Part shown: positions 57,249-64,000 of the stretch, piece after piece | Layout: each line of letters opens with the position of its first letter | How positions within the stretch are numbered: position 1 is the first letter of the stretch | The notes under the pieces: model-generated | Told to the model about the DNA's origin: nothing | The model's input: only the letters and a program-made list of their open reading frames with translations | Database searches by the model: none | Translations under genes and position numbers: made by a program | Assembly (NCBI GenBank): GCA_016194905.1 | Contig: JACQAP010000021.1 | Location: 328,942 to 392,941, forward strand | From: Betaproteobacteria bacterium | GTDB taxonomy: Bacteria; Pseudomonadota; Gammaproteobacteria; Burkholderiales; JACQAP01 | Direction: 5' to 3' | Length of the DNA stretch: 64,000 nucleotides

Positions 57249-57873
57249 GTGGCCTTTCCCGGATTTACAGACCCTTGGCCAAAGCCTGCGACGCATCAAT
57301 TGAATTCACCCGGACTGTTCTGACCCAGAGTCGAGCGACGACACTCGGTCACGAAGGAACGTCGAAAACGTGAACGACCGACATGCTGACTGGAGGCCGC
57401 GAATCGGATTTGTGTCGTTCACATAGGCGCGTGCGACGTGCCGTATTGACCTGTCATTGCTGGTCTTGGTCCGAATTCCCCAAATTGGGGCAGTCCGATC
57501 CGATGTGACACGTCCCGCAACCGCGAAGACCACAGAACATGCCCAAGCGGTAGGTTATGAGTGGTAGACCGGGATCTAGTGCGGCCCCTGAACGGCTTGT
57601 TCAAGCGGATCCCGTGGATTTCATCTTCTAACTGACCAATCAGTAGTTCAGTAACTCGAAATCACAAATAATGATTTCAAACTTTCCTCGTCCTGGTGGC
57701 GCAGTCGGCGTAATGCACCCCTGCCTTTGTGGAGCAGGGCGTCGATATGCACTTATCATGCGCTACCGTAGTCAGCGATTGAAATAATCCGAAATTAAAT
57801 ACAAAATTTGCGCGAATCACGAGCGCATTTTTCCATACTCCGATTCGGGGAATGTTTCTAAGTTATTGATTGT
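57249..57873. other. Gene-free stretch between the cNMP/DUF1003 gene and tRNA-Val
   Basis: 625 bases. The first half includes a diverged copy (57434-57525, GTATTGACCTGTC ... GTGACACGTCCCGCAACC) of the sequence at 56137-56210, suggesting an old duplication. The second half (57600-57870) is AT-rich and shows no gene, RNA or strong terminator that I can support. Confidence 0.55.
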
Positions 57874-57948
57874 TGGTGGGTGGTACTGGGATCGAACCAG
57901 TGGCCCCTGCCGTGTGAAGGCAGTGCTCTACCGCTGAGCTAACCACCC
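57874..57948 (-). tRNA. tRNA-Val (anticodon CAC)
   Basis: 75 bases with encoded CCA. Acceptor GGGTGGT pairs with ACCACCC; the anticodon stem CTGCC/GGCAG encloses TTCACAC, so the anticodon is CAC, reading GUG. A second valine isoacceptor besides the UAC one at 33011. Confidence 0.95.
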
Positions 57949-57966
57949 CCCCTGTAGAGAGGCGGC

Positions 57967-57996
57967 ATTTAACCATAGCGCCCCGGCCAGGGTCAA
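57967..57996 (-). promoter_or_regulatory. Sigma-70 promoter of tRNA-Val(CAC)
   Basis: On the minus strand TTGACC (57991-57996), an 18-base spacer and TTAAAT (57967-57972), about 19 bases before the tRNA 5' end. Confidence 0.7.
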
Positions 57997-58055
57997 TTTG
58001 GGGGGCGTGCGCCAAGCCTCGGTTTGCAAGGGCCGGGGCGCGGTGGGGCATCGCG

Positions 58056-58061
58056 TACAAT
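58056..58061 (+). promoter_or_regulatory. Possible -10 of gltX
   Basis: TACAAT 36 bases before the gltX ATG, without a good -35 at the normal distance. Confidence 0.4.
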
Positions 58062-58096
58062 GGCGCCCTTTTCGTCCTGCTGCTTTCAACGTTCCG

Positions 58097-59497
58097 ATGG
58101 TCCGTACCCGTTTCGCTCCCAGTCCCACCGGCTATCTGCACATCGGCGGCGCGCGCACCGCGCTGTACTCCTGGGCCTATGCGCGCAAGACCGGCGGCAA
58201 GTTCATCCTTCGTGTCGAAGATACCGACGTCGAGAGATCCACCGAAGTCTCTACGCAGGCCATTCTGGACGCGATGGACTGGCTCGGTCTGGACTATGAC
58301 GAGGGGCCGTTCTATCAGATGCAGCGGCTCGCGCGTTATCGCGAGGTTGCGGAGAAACTGCTCGACAGCGGCAACGCATACCAGTGTTACGCCGGCAAGG
58401 AAGAACTCGATGCAATGCGCGAGGAACAGCGCGCGAAAGGCCTGAAGCCGCGCTACGACGGCCGCTGGCGGCCGGAAAACGCGAAGGGCAAAACACCGCC
58501 CCCGGGAGTGAAGCCGGTCGTGCGCTTTCGCAATCCAGATGACGGCGATGTGACCTGGGACGATTTGGTCAAGGGGTCGATTACCGTCAGCAACCACGAA
58601 CTGGACGACCTGGTCATCCTGCGCAGTGACGGTGTGCCCACTTACAACTTCGGCGTGGTGGTCGACGACTGGGACATGAACATGACGCATGTCATCCGCG
58701 GCGACGATCACGTCAACAACACACCACGGCAGATCAACATCTTCAACGCGCTCGGCGCGCCGCTGCCGCGCTTCGGCCATATTCCGATGATCCTCGGCGC
58801 CGACGGCGAGCGGCTGTCGAAGCGCCATGGCGCAGTCAGCGTGACGCAATATCCGGAAGAGGGCTACCTGCCAGAAGCACTGATAAATTATCTGGCGCGG
58901 CTCGGCTGGGGCCATGGCGACGCGGAAATGTTCACGCGCGAACAATTCGTCGAGTGGTTTTCGCTCGAGGCGGTGAGCCGTTCTCCCGCGAAATTCGATC
59001 CGGAAAAATTGAAATGGCTCAACGCGCAATACATCAAGCAGGCCGATGATGCGCGGCTCGCCGAACTAGCCGCGCCGTTCCTCAGGATTGCCGACTGCGA
59101 TCCCGCCAAAGGCCCCGATCTGCGCGCGGTTTCCGCGTTGCTCAAGGACCGGGTCGGCACCATCGAGGAACTCGCGGATGCGGCTGTGTATTTCTACCGG
59201 CAACTTCATCCGGCCGAGGAGTTACGGACGCAGTACTACACGGCGGACATCCTGCCCGCGATGAAGGCGTTGCGCGAAAAGCTGGCCTCGGCCGAGTGGA
59301 GCAGGGCGGCGTTGAGTGCGGTGATCAAGGAAATCATTACGGCGCATTCAATCAAAATGCCGAAACTGGCAATGCCGCTGCGTGTGATGCTCACGGGGAC
59401 GGCGCATACGCCGTCGATTGATGCGGTGTTGGAGTTGATCGGCAGGGAAGAGGTGCTGCGGCGAACGGATGAGGAACTGAAGCGGTATCCGGGGTAG
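58097..59497 (+). CDS. gltX: Glutamyl-tRNA synthetase
   Basis: Class I aminoacyl-tRNA synthetase of 466 residues. ATG 58097 gives [20 protein letters not shown], with the HIGH-type motif HIGG near residue 15. The KMSKS-type motif is [11 protein letters not shown] near 240. Between them VEDTDVERS and [20 protein letters not shown] are family-specific. Its tRNA-Glu substrate gene lies 3 kb downstream, with a small island between them. Confidence 0.97.
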
Positions 59498-59510
59498 TGG
59501 CAGTGCGAAC

Positions 59511-59548
59511 AAAATAAAACGCCACCTTCGCGGTGGCGTTTTATTTTT
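59511..59548 (+). terminator. Strong terminator of gltX
   Basis: Perfect 16-base arms: AAAATAAAACGCCACC, TTCGC loop, GGTGGCGTTTTATTTT. Usable in both directions. Confidence 0.95.
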
Positions 59549-59549
59549 C

Positions 59550-59563
59550 TGGCGTCTCCACGG
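59550..59563. repeat. Left copy of the tRNA-Glu 3'-end sequence (att-like)
   Basis: TGGCGTCTCCACGG matches 13 of 14 bases of the 3' end of tRNA-Glu (62432-62445, TGGCGTCCCCACGG) in the same orientation and, as there, directly follows a T-rich hairpin. Proposed left boundary of a 2.9-kb island. Confidence 0.5.
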
Positions 59564-59787
59564 AAGCGTGCTATGCCCACCAAAGGATAGAGTGGCGGGG
59601 CAACGGGCTCGGCTAGGGCGTTGGCGGAGTTGAGCCAAAACCGCAGAACGCCCAACCAGCCAGAAGCTTGCGAATGGCGGGCGGCAAATTATAAAAGGAT
59701 TATCATTGTCCAGATGGTTCAAGAGCGGCCAGACGCCGCCTTTCACACAACGGATATTTCAGTTACAGCGTGGAAGGAAAGATAGCG

Positions 59788-60173
59788 ATGCCGACTTGGG
59801 GCTTCGTTCTCCTTGTTGCATTACTCGTTGTGCTTTCGCCCTACGTAGCGGGGACGCTTCTACCGTATAAATTTACGGGCAAAGCTTATTTCAAGAAGTT
59901 GCTCTGGGGAGACGGCGTGGATTGGAGATCACTGCCCGACGGTTGCATTCGAGACTTCGTCGCAGATGCATTGAATTATGCAAAGTCGGTATCGTCGGCC
60001 CAGCAAGCGTGCTAATTCCGAAAGCCTACTTTAATGTTGAATTCGAACGAATGTTGAAAATCCATGCCGCAGGAATTGCAGCTTTGCTCAGGAACGAGAA
60101 TAGCGGTAATGCGTGGCGAGCACAGGAAGCTCTACTGAAAAAGCATGGCGTGCTTATTCCTACACGGAGGTAG
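59788..60173 (+). pseudogene. Small membrane protein gene, apparently frameshifted
   Basis: Frame one begins MPTWGFVLLVALLVVLSPYV (a membrane helix) and stops at 60015. The next frame carries on without overlap in sense: VLIPKAYFNVEFERMLKIHA and on to TRR at 60173. Loss of one base near 60007-60010 would join them into a protein of about 128 residues. An earlier GTG at 59770 is also possible as start. I recognise no family. Either a real mutation or a sequence error could explain it; two separate small genes are less likely. Confidence 0.45.
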
Positions 60174-60176
60174 TGA

Positions 60177-60413
60177 TGGCACGGACATTTATAAGCACTG
60201 GCGATCTTCGCTCGTGGCTGAACGCTCAATTGAAAAAGTACGATGCCTGCGATGCTTGTTACTTCGGCGCAACTATGGCGTTATCGGAAACTGATTCGGA
60301 AGGTTGTAACTGGTCAGATCACTTTTACCTGTAGCGGTCAACCGGCCGATATCTGCGCGCCCGCAGCACGGCAGATTGTGGCCGAGGCGCGAGCCGGGTT
60401 CAATATCAAGTAG
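60177..60413 (+). pseudogene. Small cysteine-rich protein gene, apparently frameshifted
   Basis: Starts MARTFISTGDLRSWLNAQLK, continues through YDACDACYFG and EGCNWSDHF, then stops early. Removing one T from the TTTT run near 60323 lets the frame continue as TCSGQPADICAPAARQIVAE and on to FNIK, ending at 60413, for about 78 residues with cysteine pairs in each half. No family recognised. It starts four bases after the preceding gene, so the two form a unit, and both carry a single-base disruption. Confidence 0.5.
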
Positions 60414-60450
60414 GCGAACTAGGCTTACCGAAATTCTTGGGGAAGATTCG

Positions 60451-61251
60451 CTAGCCTAGCAGTTCGAATGCCAAGCGATTCTTTGGGACATCTAAGACCG
60501 CTTGGTAGACAGGTAGCGGTATGGAACGCTGAGCGACCCACGACAAAACTCTATCTTTGTCGGCCTCGTCAATCTTGGCGCCAAGAATAATTGCCGAAAG
60601 CAATTCGGTTGGGAAAACCCGTGCTTCGGGGCCTCTGTCCGGCTCAAGCATTCGCCACTCGCGCTCGTGTACCCATTCCTCCGTTTTGGTCATTAGGAGT
60701 TGCTGTGCCCGCTCGTTTCGGTCATTGCCTAGCAAGTTCGGTACCGGAAGCTCTTTTACGTAGGTCACCGGCATGGCCAGTGCAAAAAACGGAGGGTCTA
60801 CCACGACTCTGAATTGAAGGCATACGCCGCTATGACTGCTCGCATAGTAGGACCACATAAGAATACTTTCTTGAGTCGAGGACAGGGAAAGAATTCCCGT
60901 GCCGTTTACTTCACGTTGAAACCCTTCGGTTACGTTGCGAATGAAAGTCGCAGGATCACCAAGTTTTCGCATCCTCTCCCGGCGCTCCTGCCGCGAGTAG
61001 CCATACTTACGCAGCAGTTGCTTTAGATTCTCCCGAAGTTCATCAGGTGATCCATCTGTACGGAATCTAATCCGGCAATCGAAAGGATCGTTGAACTTCT
61101 CGGGGGATGCAAAGTAAACCCGCGAATCAACAATTATCTGTCGTACCCATTCGGCCCGTGGCCCTACAAGATCTCGATATCGGTAAAGAAAGCCCGCACC
61201 TGAGGATTGGTCTCGGAGTTGTCGATCGTTTTCGTCGGCAGAAGGAAGCAT
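60451..61251 (-). CDS. DUF2971 domain protein
   Basis: 266 residues. The DUF2971 pattern is present: FLYRYRD near residue 21, YFASPEKFNDPFDCRIRFRT near 46-65, GILSLSSTQESILMWSYYAS near 118-137, HSGVCLQFRV, and the late WVHEREWRM. Function unknown; such genes are frequent in accessory islands and are often next to other genes of unknown function. It lies 22 bases downstream of the nuclease-like gene on the same strand, which suggests a two-gene unit. Codon and base use are more AT-rich than in the core genes around. Confidence 0.87.
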   Translation of the reverse strand: MLPSADENDRQLRDQSSGAGFLYRYRDLVGPRAEWVRQIIVDSRVYFASPEKFNDPFDCRIRFRTDGSPDELRENLKQLLRKYGYSRQERRERMRKLGDPATFIRNVTEGFQREVNGTGILSLSSTQESILMWSYYASSHSGVCLQFRVVVDPPFFALAMPVTYVKELPVPNLLGNDRNERAQQLLMTKTEEWVHEREWRMLEPDRGPEARVFPTELLSAIILGAKIDEADKDRVLSWVAQRSIPLPVYQAVLDVPKNRLAFELLG

Positions 61252-61273
61252 TACGCAAGATTATCGCGCTGAG

Positions 61274-62083
61274 CTAGCTGCGACCAGAAACGGCATACCC
61301 GATTCTGTTATCGAGTTCCAATTCACCTAAGAGCTTTGGTAGTGCGGATGCCTCAACGACCAATACCGTATTTTCCTTGGCTTCGCCAATCGATCCAAAT
61401 CCCGCTGCCCAGTCAACGGACTGAGCGAGGTTAGGCAGGTGAGATAACTGCTTCCGAAATCTGAGATACGGGACATTCTCGAAGTCTCCATGAGCGATTG
61501 TGCCTGTCTCAAGGTCTACGTCTTTCGGATCAAACTTGCACACCTCCAGTTTTGCGGTCGTGGCAATAACACTTACATACACTCTCAGCTGTGCATAGTC
61601 ATACTTTCGTAGCAAGTACGCTTCTTCTTGCGCTATGGCCTCCGTTGACGAAACGACTGAGGCCGCAATTCGTTCAAGCATGGGCCTTGCTTTGGCGTCC
61701 TGTCCTGCAACAACACAGAACTCTGATTCGTAGGAATCTGGATCTATTGGGCAGTCGATCCAGTCGAAGTATTCGGAACGTGATTTAGATAGATACGATG
61801 CCCAAAACTTGCAGTGTCTCCTTAGGCCATCTTGGGGCCGGGGCAATAGAAACTGCCACGTAGCTTCTTGGGGACGCTTGCATTCTATGTTCAGAACGAA
61901 AGTAGCATGCCGATTCTCAACCACTAAGTCGATAAAGCCCGACTCTTGGGTTCGTTCATTGGTCCATCCATGTTCCTGATGAAGAACCTTCCAACCGTGA
62001 TACTGCTTGGACGCATCAATTGCATGTGCGAGCCCAATTTGTAGAGGAAATCCGGATAGATTGATATGTTTTAACTTTTCCAT
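61274..62083 (-). CDS. Hypothetical protein with PD-(D/E)XK nuclease-like motif
   Basis: 269 residues, no named family recognised. Around residues 40-75, ESGFIDLVVENRHATFVLNI is followed by ECKR, giving an acidic residue on one strand and E-x-K on the next, the core of PD-(D/E)XK nucleases. A glutamine-rich helix with TWQFLLPRPQDGLRRHCKFW follows. No helicase or methylase neighbour is present. It is the first gene of the pair with DUF2971 and lies inside the tRNA-Glu-bounded island. Nuclease activity is an inference from the motif only. Confidence 0.6.
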   Translation of the reverse strand: MEKLKHINLSGFPLQIGLAHAIDASKQYHGWKVLHQEHGWTNERTQESGFIDLVVENRHATFVLNIECKRPQEATWQFLLPRPQDGLRRHCKFWASYLSKSRSEYFDWIDCPIDPDSYESEFCVVAGQDAKARPMLERIAASVVSSTEAIAQEEAYLLRKYDYAQLRVYVSVIATTAKLEVCKFDPKDVDLETGTIAHGDFENVPYLRFRKQLSHLPNLAQSVDWAAGFGSIGEAKENTVLVVEASALPKLLGELELDNRIGYAVSGRS

Positions 62084-62214
62084 GCATCACCAATTGTTCA
62101 GTTAACTGCGCAGACCCCGTCGAGTCTTTCCAGAATCCTGCTTAGTGCTTATTGCAACTGCCGATATTCTGACAACTAACCTTTGCGATTGCGGGACTGT
62201 TTGATGGTGGTGGA

Positions 62215-62233
62215 TGGCGTCCCCAAGGGGATT
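62215..62233. repeat. Second direct copy of the tRNA-Glu 3' end
   Basis: TGGCGTCCCCAAGGGGATT differs from the tRNA-Glu 3' end at 62432-62450 by one base out of 19, in the same orientation. The 150 bases that follow (to 62383) contain no gene I can support. Confidence 0.7.
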
Positions 62234-62383
62234 GCTCGCGGTTCATGTTGCCTCCGCGATCCGCGAATCCCTCGTAAGCGACCAAGGTCGCGCGAGGGAC
62301 CGCCGCGCCATAATGCTGCGCGGCGTCCAAGCCGACATTCACTGGATGTCGGCTTGTCGAACCGAGGGGCTCGAATCGAACCT

Positions 62384-62443
62384 GTGGGGACGCCAAATAA
62401 AAAAGCCGGCACAAGGCCGGCTGTTTTTATTTGGCGTCCCCAC
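62384..62443 (-). terminator. Terminator of the tRNA-Ala/tRNA-Glu operon within a long inverted repeat
   Basis: Inner hairpin GCCGGC-CTTGT-GCCGGC followed on the minus strand by TTTTTT. The flanks extend the symmetry: GTGGGGACGCCAAATAAAAA at 62384-62403 is the exact complement of 62424-62443, which includes the last 12 bases of tRNA-Glu. The symmetry thus contains an inverted copy of the tRNA end. Confidence 0.85.
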
Positions 62444-62507
62444 GGGGATTCGAACCCCGGTTACCGCCGTGAAAGGGCAGTGTCCTAGGCCTCTAGACGA
62501 TAGGGAC
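62432..62507 (-). tRNA. tRNA-Glu (anticodon UUC)
   Basis: 76 bases with encoded CCA. Acceptor GTCCCTA pairs with TGGGGAC (one G-T); anticodon loop CTTTCAC gives TTC. Downstream of tRNA-Ala in a two-tRNA operon. Its 3' end is repeated at 59550, 62215 and, inverted, at 62384. Confidence 0.97.
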
Positions 62508-62528
62508 TTAAGGCAGATCTTTGCTTCG

Positions 62529-62604
<76 letters not shown>

Positions 62605-62617
62605 ACGAAAGGGGCGC

Positions 62618-62646
62618 ATTATACGGGCCGGATTTCCCTCTGTAAA
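62618..62646 (-). promoter_or_regulatory. Strong promoter of the tRNA-Ala/tRNA-Glu operon
   Basis: On the minus strand TTTACA (62641-62646), a 17-base spacer and TATAAT (62618-62623), followed by a GC-rich discriminator. Confidence 0.85.
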
Positions 62647-62671
62647 GAATGGGAAACGGGTCCGTTCGACA

Positions 62672-62709
62672 ACGAAAAGAAAACGCCCGTTCGTTTCCGA
62701 ACGGGCGTT
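62672..62709 (-). terminator. Terminator of the molybdopterin dehydrogenase gene
   Basis: AACGCCCGTTCG, GAAA-type loop, CGAACGGGCGTT: perfect 12-base stem at 62682-62709, followed on the minus strand by TTCTTTTCG. Confidence 0.85.
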
Positions 62710-62764
62710 ACTTTCTTGCTTCCAGCAACCGCCTCCAGTACCTGCGAGGCGGAGAGACTCTACA

Positions 62765-64000
62765 TCAGGCAGTCAACTGCTCACCCAGCGGCAGGTTGCG
62801 GATACGCTTGCCAGTTGCCGCGAACACTGCGTTGATGAACGCCGGTGCGAACGGTGGCACTCCCGGTTCGCCAACCCCGCTGGACGGATCATCGATGGTT
62901 GCGGCGATGATGTGCGTCCGAACGTCCATCGCACCCTGGCCTATACGCAGCACCGGGTAGTCGTGGAAGTTGTTCTGCTGAACGCGGCCGTTCTTGAAGG
63001 TGATCTGATTCAGCTTCGCGAGGCTCAGTCCCATTACCGCGGCGCCTTCGATCTGCGAACGGATACGCTCGGGGTTGACCACAAACCCGCAGTCGATCGC
63101 CGTATCCACACGCGGAACCGTCACGTTACCCTTGTCGTCCACCGCGACTTCCACAACAGTTGCCACGTAAGTCAGGAAACTGCGTTGAACCGCTATGCCC
63201 AAGCCACTGCCTTTGGGCAACTGACGACCCCATCCGGCTTCCTTGGCGACGCGCTCGACGACACGGCGGGTCCGGGCGGTATCGACCGGATAGGTGTCCC
63301 ACGGATCGCCGTAATTCCACAACTCGCTCGTCACGGTCTTGCGCGGATCGACGATACGCGGCGGTCCGATCATCTCGAGCAGGAAGTCCTTTGGATCCCG
63401 CCCAAGTTCATGGGCCAGTTCCGCCACCATGGATTGCATGGCGAAGGCGTGCGGAATGTTGTTGACCGAGCGGAACCAGCCGATGCGGGTCTGAGCAACG
63501 GCCTCACCGGTTTCCAGTCGCAGGTTGGGTACGTCGAATGGCGTGTCGATCAGCCCCAGTCCGAGTTCCAATGCGCTTTCGCGTTTCGGGTCCGGCATGA
63601 AGTTGGACATCAACGACGGCGAAACGCTGCGATGGCGCCAAGCCACAACCTTCTTGTTCTTGTCGAGGCCGGCGGTAATGTGCTGGTACGACACGCTGTG
63701 ATAGAACGAGTGATGGATATCGTCTTCGCGAGTCCACACCACCTTCACCGGCGTGCCGCCCATCGCCTTGGAAAGGATTGCAGCTTCTAGGGCAAAGTCA
63801 CATTTCGATTTGCGCCCGAAGCCGCCGCCCAGCAGCGTAACGTTGACCCTGACATCGTCTTCCTTCATGCCAAGAGTCTTCGCGACGTCACCACGGGTTC
63901 CGCCAGGGCTTTGCACGCACGCCCAGACTTCGGCTTTCCCATCCTTGATCTGTACGACTGCCGCAGGCGGTTCCATCGGAACGTGGACGCCATGCGGAAT
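62765..64000 (-). CDS. Molybdopterin-binding dehydrogenase large subunit (xanthine dehydrogenase/IorB-like), C-terminal part
   Basis: The frame is open to the window edge; the last 411 residues are visible. They carry HVPMEPPAAVVQIKDGKAEV at the start, a molybdopterin contact GGGFGRKSKCDFALEAAILS near visible residue 60, and the closing VGEPGVPPFAPAFINAVFAA with the glutamate expected at the molybdenum site. The arrangement fits the membrane- or periplasm-linked isoquinoline 1-oxidoreductase beta-type subunits (about 740 residues) rather than xanthine dehydrogenase itself. The twin-arginine signal, 2Fe-2S partner and substrate cannot be judged from here. Confidence 0.9.
   Translation of the reverse strand: MPHGVHVPMEPPAAVVQIKDGKAEVWACVQSPGGTRGDVAKTLGMKEDDVRVNVTLLGGGFGRKSKCDFALEAAILSKAMGGTPVKVVWTREDDIHHSFYHSVSYQHITAGLDKNKKVVAWRHRSVSPSLMSNFMPDPKRESALELGLGLIDTPFDVPNLRLETGEAVAQTRIGWFRSVNNIPHAFAMQSMVAELAHELGRDPKDFLLEMIGPPRIVDPRKTVTSELWNYGDPWDTYPVDTARTRRVVERVAKEAGWGRQLPKGSGLGIAVQRSFLTYVATVVEVAVDDKGNVTVPRVDTAIDCGFVVNPERIRSQIEGAAVMGLSLAKLNQITFKNGRVQQNNFHDYPVLRIGQGAMDVRTHIIAATIDDPSSGVGEPGVPPFAPAFINAVFAATGKRIRNLPLGEQLTA

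What the first reader, a model, noticed from the sequence alone, without database searches (positions are those of the whole stretch)
59550..62450. Small island bounded by copies of the tRNA-Glu 3' end
TGGCGTC(T/C)CCACGG occurs right after the gltX terminator and at the 3' end of tRNA-Glu in the same orientation, with a third copy at 62215. Between them lie lower-GC genes of unknown function, two of them disrupted. This is the pattern of integration at a tRNA end with the integrase lost.
Basis: partly seen in the sequence, partly recalled or inferred. Interest (0 to 1): 0.6.

Follow-up and report, generated by a model that had tools for sequence, protein, structure and literature searches.

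The report
Rearranged tRNA-Glu locus with accessory genes
A small patch of probably acquired genes, with a candidate anti-phage gene, lies between a synthetase gene and its usual tRNA neighbours, which face the other way here; the repeats that look like insertion marks may instead be relics of the tRNA's own stop-signal hairpin.

Summary
The genes between have lower G+C and no DNA counterpart in three congeners' assemblies. "Integration at tRNA-Glu with the integrase lost" is partly supported. For it: in two congeners a tyrosine integrase lies beside a displaced tRNA-Glu 3' part. Against it: (1) the window's tRNA is followed by its native flank, a hairpin sequence found once each in three of four congeneric genomes, always behind tRNA-Glu or its displaced part; (2) in related gltX loci tRNA-Glu lies on gltX's strand (45 of 45 that have it), whereas here the tRNA-Ala/tRNA-Glu pair faces gltX; (3) the left copy is fused to a hairpin related to tRNA-Glu terminators. 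I read it as the relic of a departed gltX-linked tRNA-Glu: a terminator with an inverted copy of the tRNA end behind it. Such inverted copies also follow tRNA-Glu in two other lineages, perhaps made by template switching. The displaced-fragment (att) reading stays open, because the hairpin is symmetric. Cargo: a PADLOC PDC-S31 (DUF2971) gene, a possible PD-(D/E)XK gene and two apparently broken small ORFs.

The parts
   Evidence: ORF; 90% and 80% identical orthologues in congeners G003 and G001
59511..59547 (+). T1: terminator-like hairpin after gltX, related to tRNA-Glu terminators
   Evidence: 16-bp perfect inverted repeat; apart from itself, 59498-62214 matches at E <= 0.001 in four congeneric genomes only the tRNA-Glu terminator of G001, in both orientations; direct comparison also matches that of G002, 81% over 53
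59550..59563 (+). Left copy of the tRNA-Glu end: read here as the inverted copy that follows a tRNA-Glu terminator, left from a lost gltX-linked tRNA-Glu; alternatively a displaced tRNA 3' fragment
59770..60173 (+). Remains of a small gene, two overlapping frames
   Evidence: only weak matches, none at a curated cutoff
60113..60413 (+). Remains of a second small gene, two overlapping frames
   Evidence: one weak plasmid match, 28.8% over 52 aa, E 6e-3
60451..61251 (-). DUF2971 protein, PADLOC candidate defence family PDC-S31 (266 aa)
   Evidence: PDC-S31 E 4.1e-48; PF11185 29.6 bits, cutoff 22; phrog_1762 E 8.9e-38; related genes in 427 plasmid records
61274..62083 (-). 269-aa protein with a PD-(D/E)XK-like motif (GFIDLVxEN...IExKR; motif name recalled)
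   Evidence: motif kept in the single relative found, 39% identical, G253; no family match
62215..62233 (+). Third copy, 19 nt, same orientation as the tRNA-Glu end; pairs with 62382-62395 to close a multi-hairpin fold
   Evidence: 19/19 to the tRNA-Glu end of G002
62321..62381 (-). Native flank of tRNA-Glu: hairpin sequence shared by three congeners
   Evidence: single copy behind tRNA-Glu plus terminator in G000 and G002, and behind the displaced tRNA-Glu part plus terminator in G001; absent in G003; 4 of 17 pairs change on both sides
62382..62395 (-). Inverted copy of the tRNA-Glu 3' end directly after its terminator
   Evidence: (I1, 23 nt, 96% complementary)
62397..62431 (-). T2: tRNA-Glu terminator hairpin
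62432..62507 (-). tRNA-Glu (ttc), the only copy that a DNA search found in this genome
62529..62604 (-). tRNA-Ala (ggc); its upstream region is conserved with G001 to 62649

Best explanation
This is a rearranged gltX/tRNA-Glu locus with an accessory gene patch in it, not a simple integrase island. Shown: in the related gltX loci that keep these tRNAs, gltX is followed on the same strand by tRNA-Ala and tRNA-Glu; here the pair faces gltX from the other strand, 2.9 kb away; between them lies DNA without counterpart in the assemblies of three congeners; the tRNA still has its native flank. Inferred: a former gltX-linked tRNA-Ala/tRNA-Glu copy was lost, leaving its terminator hairpin T1 and the inverted copy of the tRNA 3' end that follows such terminators (59511-59563). 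That inverted copy arises when DNA synthesis switches template at the terminator hairpin and copies the tRNA end in reverse, making a longer palindrome; the same happened at T2 (62382-62431). The 62215 copy is then either a further product of this process or a displaced fragment left by an older element. The cargo probably has a defence role (PDC-S31 candidate plus a nuclease-like gene), which is not tested.
For: Of 80 named gltX loci (the best 80 of a capped list), 45 have a tRNA-Glu within 5 kb downstream, the first one on gltX's strand in 45 of 45, with tRNA-Ala in 44; 24 have neither tRNA, 5 Ala only, 6 are too short; G001, same genus, has gltX>Ala>Glu. Native flank: the pattern occurs once in each of G000, G001 and G002, behind tRNA-Glu or its displaced part plus terminator, and not in G003; in a sample of 369 class genomes, without the other congeners, only in G000. 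T1 with its 14-nt copy matches tRNA-Glu terminators of G001 and G002. Inverted tRNA ends behind tRNA-Glu terminators also occur in G323 and Noviherbaspirillum L128: exact copies of 10 nt or more in 3 of 93 unique tRNA-Glu genes and 0 of 147 other tRNAs, against 5 of 4800 single-base shuffles (a fourth raw tRNA-Glu hit, L128 offset 96, lies in the next tRNA gene and was set aside). Template switching as a maker of perfect stems: PMC8794818 (passages).
Against: T1 is a palindrome, and the left copy aligns about as well as a displaced tRNA 3' end (scores 65 against 66 with G001, 61 against 60 with G002; G000-T2 and G323 favour my orientation, 47:36 and 64:46). By eye T1's inner stem resembles the G001/G002 terminators more than T2's does, as expected if T1 were the displaced original terminator. 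A fragment starting at the T-stem end fits a known integrase subsite (PMC4383910). My reading needs a second, lost copy of the tRNA pair that nothing shows directly. The inverted copies in G001 and G002 are degenerate, and exact ones are rare (2 of 399 order genomes at tRNA-Glu). G002 (350 contigs, gltX not found) and G003 (580 contigs) are fragmented, so the history is incomplete.
Confidence: 0.5

Rival explanations
1. A decayed integrative island at tRNA-Glu: an element integrated at the acceptor/T-stem end of tRNA-Glu, restored the tRNA with its own 3' end and terminator T2, and displaced the old 3' end plus terminator T1 to 59511-59563; the integrase was later lost, and the whole block was inverted.
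For: 14-nt 3' fragment in the tRNA's orientation, joined to a tRNA-Glu-type terminator; accessory cargo; tyrosine integrases beside tRNA-Glu 3' parts in G001 and G003; the T-stem junction is a known crossover subsite (PMC4383910); the 269-aa relative in G253 lies near a tRNA-Arg.
Against: The native flank abuts the resident tRNA instead of T1; no integrase in the six ORFs scanned; the tRNA parts beside the integrases of G001 and G003 are about 44-46 nt long, not 14; an additional inversion is needed.
Confidence: 0.3
2. The 62215-62431 part is a separate structured element: a tRNA-end-bounded multi-hairpin unit that forms or moves as single-stranded DNA, or acts as an RNA behind tRNA-Glu.
For: 62205-62435 folds far better than shuffles (z -9.8 as DNA, -7.9 as RNA); four pairs with changes on both sides among three congeners; palindrome runs also follow tRNA-Glu in Herbaspirillum L130 and Noviherbaspirillum L128.
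Against: Only three sequences, and 30 of 500 shuffles reach the covariation values; the 62215 end was not seen behind the flank in G001 or G002; a template-switch process alone would also keep stems paired; single copy per genome.
Confidence: 0.1
3. T1 is an ordinary gltX terminator and the 14-nt match is coincidence.
For: tRNA-end matches with up to 2 mismatches are expected in the whole window (mean 1.56); hairpins of this kind are common terminators (general knowledge).
Against: Only 3 of 2000 simulated gaps hold even one such match at 1 mismatch; the relatives of T1 plus copy found in congeners are tRNA-Glu terminators.
Confidence: 0.1

Closest known systems
tRNA-targeted genomic islands (Islander-type: tDNA, displaced 3' fragment, integrase; PMC4383910, passages)
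   Same: tRNA and a fragment of its 3' end in the same orientation, accessory genes between, over 2 kb long
   Different: No integrase found; native flank still attached to the tRNA; third and inverted copies; tRNA pair inverted relative to relatives
Quasipalindrome / template-switch mutations that create hairpins (PMC8794818, passages; PMC7202029, title and start of abstract in the listing)
   Same: Reverse-complement copy extending an existing hairpin
   Different: Here the copied sequence is the 3' end of a tRNA gene, so it mimics an attachment site; mechanism inferred from sequence only
PADLOC PDC-S31 / DUF2971 candidate defence gene
   Same: Strong profile match over most of the protein
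   Different: Next to a 269-aa nuclease-like gene that has no family; activity not tested here

Membership tests
tRNA-targeted genomic island | Integrase gene in the segment | tested here: not met
   No integrase profile in the six ORFs scanned of 59770-62083; shorter ORFs were not scanned
tRNA-targeted genomic island | Fragment of the tRNA 3' end downstream of the tRNA, same orientation | tested here: inconclusive
   14-nt copy at 59550 and 19-nt copy at 62215, but 59550 fits a post-terminator inverted copy about equally well
tRNA-targeted genomic island | Native chromosomal flank lies beyond the displaced fragment | tested here: not met
   Native flank abuts the resident tRNA-Glu
tRNA-targeted genomic island | Empty site in relatives | tested here: inconclusive
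   Segment not found in three congeners, but none has the flanks joined: G001 has gltX>Ala>Glu plus another element, G002 another neighbour and no gltX found, G003's gltX contig lacks the tRNAs
PDC-S31 candidate defence gene | Profile match over most of the protein | tested here: met
   PDLC04990, residues 21-260 of 266, E 4.1e-48
PD-(D/E)XK nuclease | D ... E-x-K motif in the core fold | tested here: inconclusive
   Motif conserved in two sequences; no family match; model too poor (mean pLDDT 37.6)

The most novel reading that the evidence does not exclude
tRNA-Glu terminators repeatedly grow into long palindromes by template switching, copying the tRNA 3' end in reverse behind the terminator; when the tRNA later leaves, the copy remains as a pseudo-attachment site that mimics a displaced island end and may seed rearrangement or real integration.
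Probability: 0.3. Interest if true: 0.5.

Novelty: new variant of a known kind. Interest (0 to 1): 0.35.

Why it matters
tRNA 3'-end repeats are a standard mark of a site-specific island. If terminator palindromes can make and leave such repeats without an integrase, some integrase-less islands are misread, and their boundaries are wrong. The locus also adds a rare nuclease-like gene beside a PDC-S31 candidate defence gene.

Tried and rejected
Dispersed repeat: the 221-base stretch 62200-62420 has no other strong copy in its genome (best hit elsewhere E 0.02), and the flank pattern is single-copy, so it is not a REP-type repeat there. Rfam: in 57500-63000 only the three tRNAs reached a gathering score. 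Phage or plasmid origin: no match of the 269-aa protein in plasmids (E <= 1e-5) or phages (E <= 0.01); viral contig scans with both larger proteins found no relatives. Structure of the 269-aa protein: model too poor, so no fold search was made. G002's neighbour gene as a marker: the best matches in G000 and G003 have no tRNA in their 3.3-kb loci, so it gave no ancestral order. Two of four genomes with an exact inverted-end pattern among 399 (G277, G293) have no tRNA in the fetched locus and were set aside. Papers: three searches, judged by their listings, turned up no report of inverted tRNA 3' ends behind terminators; passages of PMC4383910 and PMC9897764 were read, and the second names phage integration as a source of tRNA fragments. 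(DUF2971) gave nothing on its function; listings only.

In one search my script left three of 30 loci (L016, L027, L034) in the wrong orientation; they are not counted. Of the other 27, 10 have Ala then Glu downstream on gltX's strand, 2 Ala only, 15 neither (among them L009, the window's own gene with only 1.5 kb downstream), 0 inverted. One search left out 17 loci that repeat the window or G001/G002 places. One search left out tRNAs with under 120 bases downstream or with N.

Full report
OBSERVATION. The window holds four near-copies of the tRNA-Glu 3' end around the gltX-tRNA gap: 59550 (+), 62215 (+), 62432 (+, the tRNA itself) and, unnoticed before, 62382-62395 inverted. They are well above chance for the gap. 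The segment between them is lower in G+C than gltX and the right flank. It contains a PDC-S31/DUF2971 gene, a 269-aa gene without family, and two small genes seen only as overlapping frames.

ANCESTRAL ORDER. In 80 named gltX loci (the best 80 of a capped list; mostly Betaproteobacteria such as Nitrosospira, Nitrosomonas and Massilia, best identity 72%), 45 have tRNA-Glu within 5 kb downstream, the first one on the strand of gltX in all 45; 24 have neither tRNA, 5 only tRNA-Ala, 6 are too short. Congener G001 has gltX, tRNA-Ala, tRNA-Glu in this order; tRNA-Ala with its upstream region matches the window over 121 bases at 95%. In the window the pair lies on the other strand. G003, whose GltX is the closest found (90%), has no tRNA-Ala or tRNA-Glu in the 1.3 kb that its contig holds behind gltX. 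In G002 no gltX was found; its tRNA pair lies about 3.4 kb from the relative of the gene at 62765-64000, which also neighbours the pair in the window. The locus is therefore rearranged in more than one congener.

tRNA-GLU AS INTEGRATION SITE. In G001 and G003 a tRNA-Glu 3' part of about 44-46 nt lies next to a tyrosine integrase gene (PF00589, 52.5 and 89.5 bits, cutoff 27.1). In G001 it is followed by terminator and native flank, as expected of the displaced end of an element.

WHY THE WINDOW DIFFERS. Behind the window's tRNA-Glu comes terminator T2, then an inverted copy of the tRNA end, then a hairpin sequence (62321-62381) that also follows tRNA-Glu plus terminator in G002 and the displaced tRNA part plus terminator in G001. 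A pattern made from these three occurs once in each of them and not in G003; in a sample of 369 class genomes, without the other congeners, only in the window's own. I take this as native flank. If an element had been inserted at the tRNA, the native flank should be at the far end, by T1; it is not.

THE LEFT COPY. A search with 59498-62214 in the four congeneric genomes found at E <= 0.001, besides itself, only the G001 tRNA-Glu terminator; direct comparison also matches that of G002. So T1 plus the 14-nt copy very probably derives from a tRNA-Glu end. Orientation cannot be settled: alignments to G001 and G002 tie, and those to G000-T2 and G323 favour the terminator-then-inverted-copy reading. 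With the ancestral orientation beside gltX, I prefer a relic of a lost gltX-linked tRNA-Glu. Against this, a 3' fragment from the T-stem end on is also what one known class of integrase leaves (PMC4383910, passages).

INVERTED COPIES ELSEWHERE. Exact inverted tRNA ends of 10 nt or more behind the terminator were found in 3 of 93 unique tRNA-Glu genes (window, G323, Noviherbaspirillum) and in 0 of 147 other tRNAs among the fetched loci, against 5 of 4800 shuffled controls (one raw hit set aside). The sample is mostly gltX neighbourhoods, so it is not a genome-wide rate. In 399 order genomes a strict pattern hit 4, of which 2 (G000, G323) are at tRNA-Glu. Template switching at hairpins is a published source of perfect stems (PMC8794818, passages); that it acted here is inference. 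The 62205-62435 strand folds far better than shuffles, and two flank hairpins keep pairing through four double changes, but three sequences are few and 30 of 500 shuffles do as well.

CARGO. The 266-aa protein matches PDC-S31 strongly and has relatives in 427 plasmid records, all under 60% identity. The 269-aa protein has one relative in 399 order genomes besides itself; both keep GFIDLVxEN...IExKR, a PD-(D/E)XK-like motif (motif name recalled). The relative lies near a tRNA-Arg. A defence role is a guess from family labels.

VERDICT. Repeats confirmed; accessory patch likely; simple tRNA integration partly supported and, for the boundaries, disfavoured; the left repeat is open between relic terminator arm (0.5) and displaced att end (0.3).

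Noticed in passing
L059:440-1846 (G001 C65): Tyrosine integrase gene next to a tRNA-Glu 3' part followed by terminator and native flank: probably an integrative element end in a congener.
   Followed up: partly
L060:3424-4888 (G003 C354): A second tyrosine integrase next to a tRNA-Glu 3' part, with a different sequence behind it.
   Followed up: partly
L128 and L130, behind tRNA-Glu: Runs of near-perfect palindromes follow tRNA-Glu in Noviherbaspirillum and Herbaspirillum, starting with an inverted (L130: partial) copy of the tRNA end.
   Followed up: partly
window:57874-57948: tRNA-Val (cac), divergent from gltX, is conserved in congeners G001 and G003.
   Followed up: no
L148:836-2304 (G253): The only relative found of the 269-aa protein lies downstream of a tRNA-Arg; a short ORF between them looks to me like an integrase start but has no Pfam match.
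   Followed up: partly
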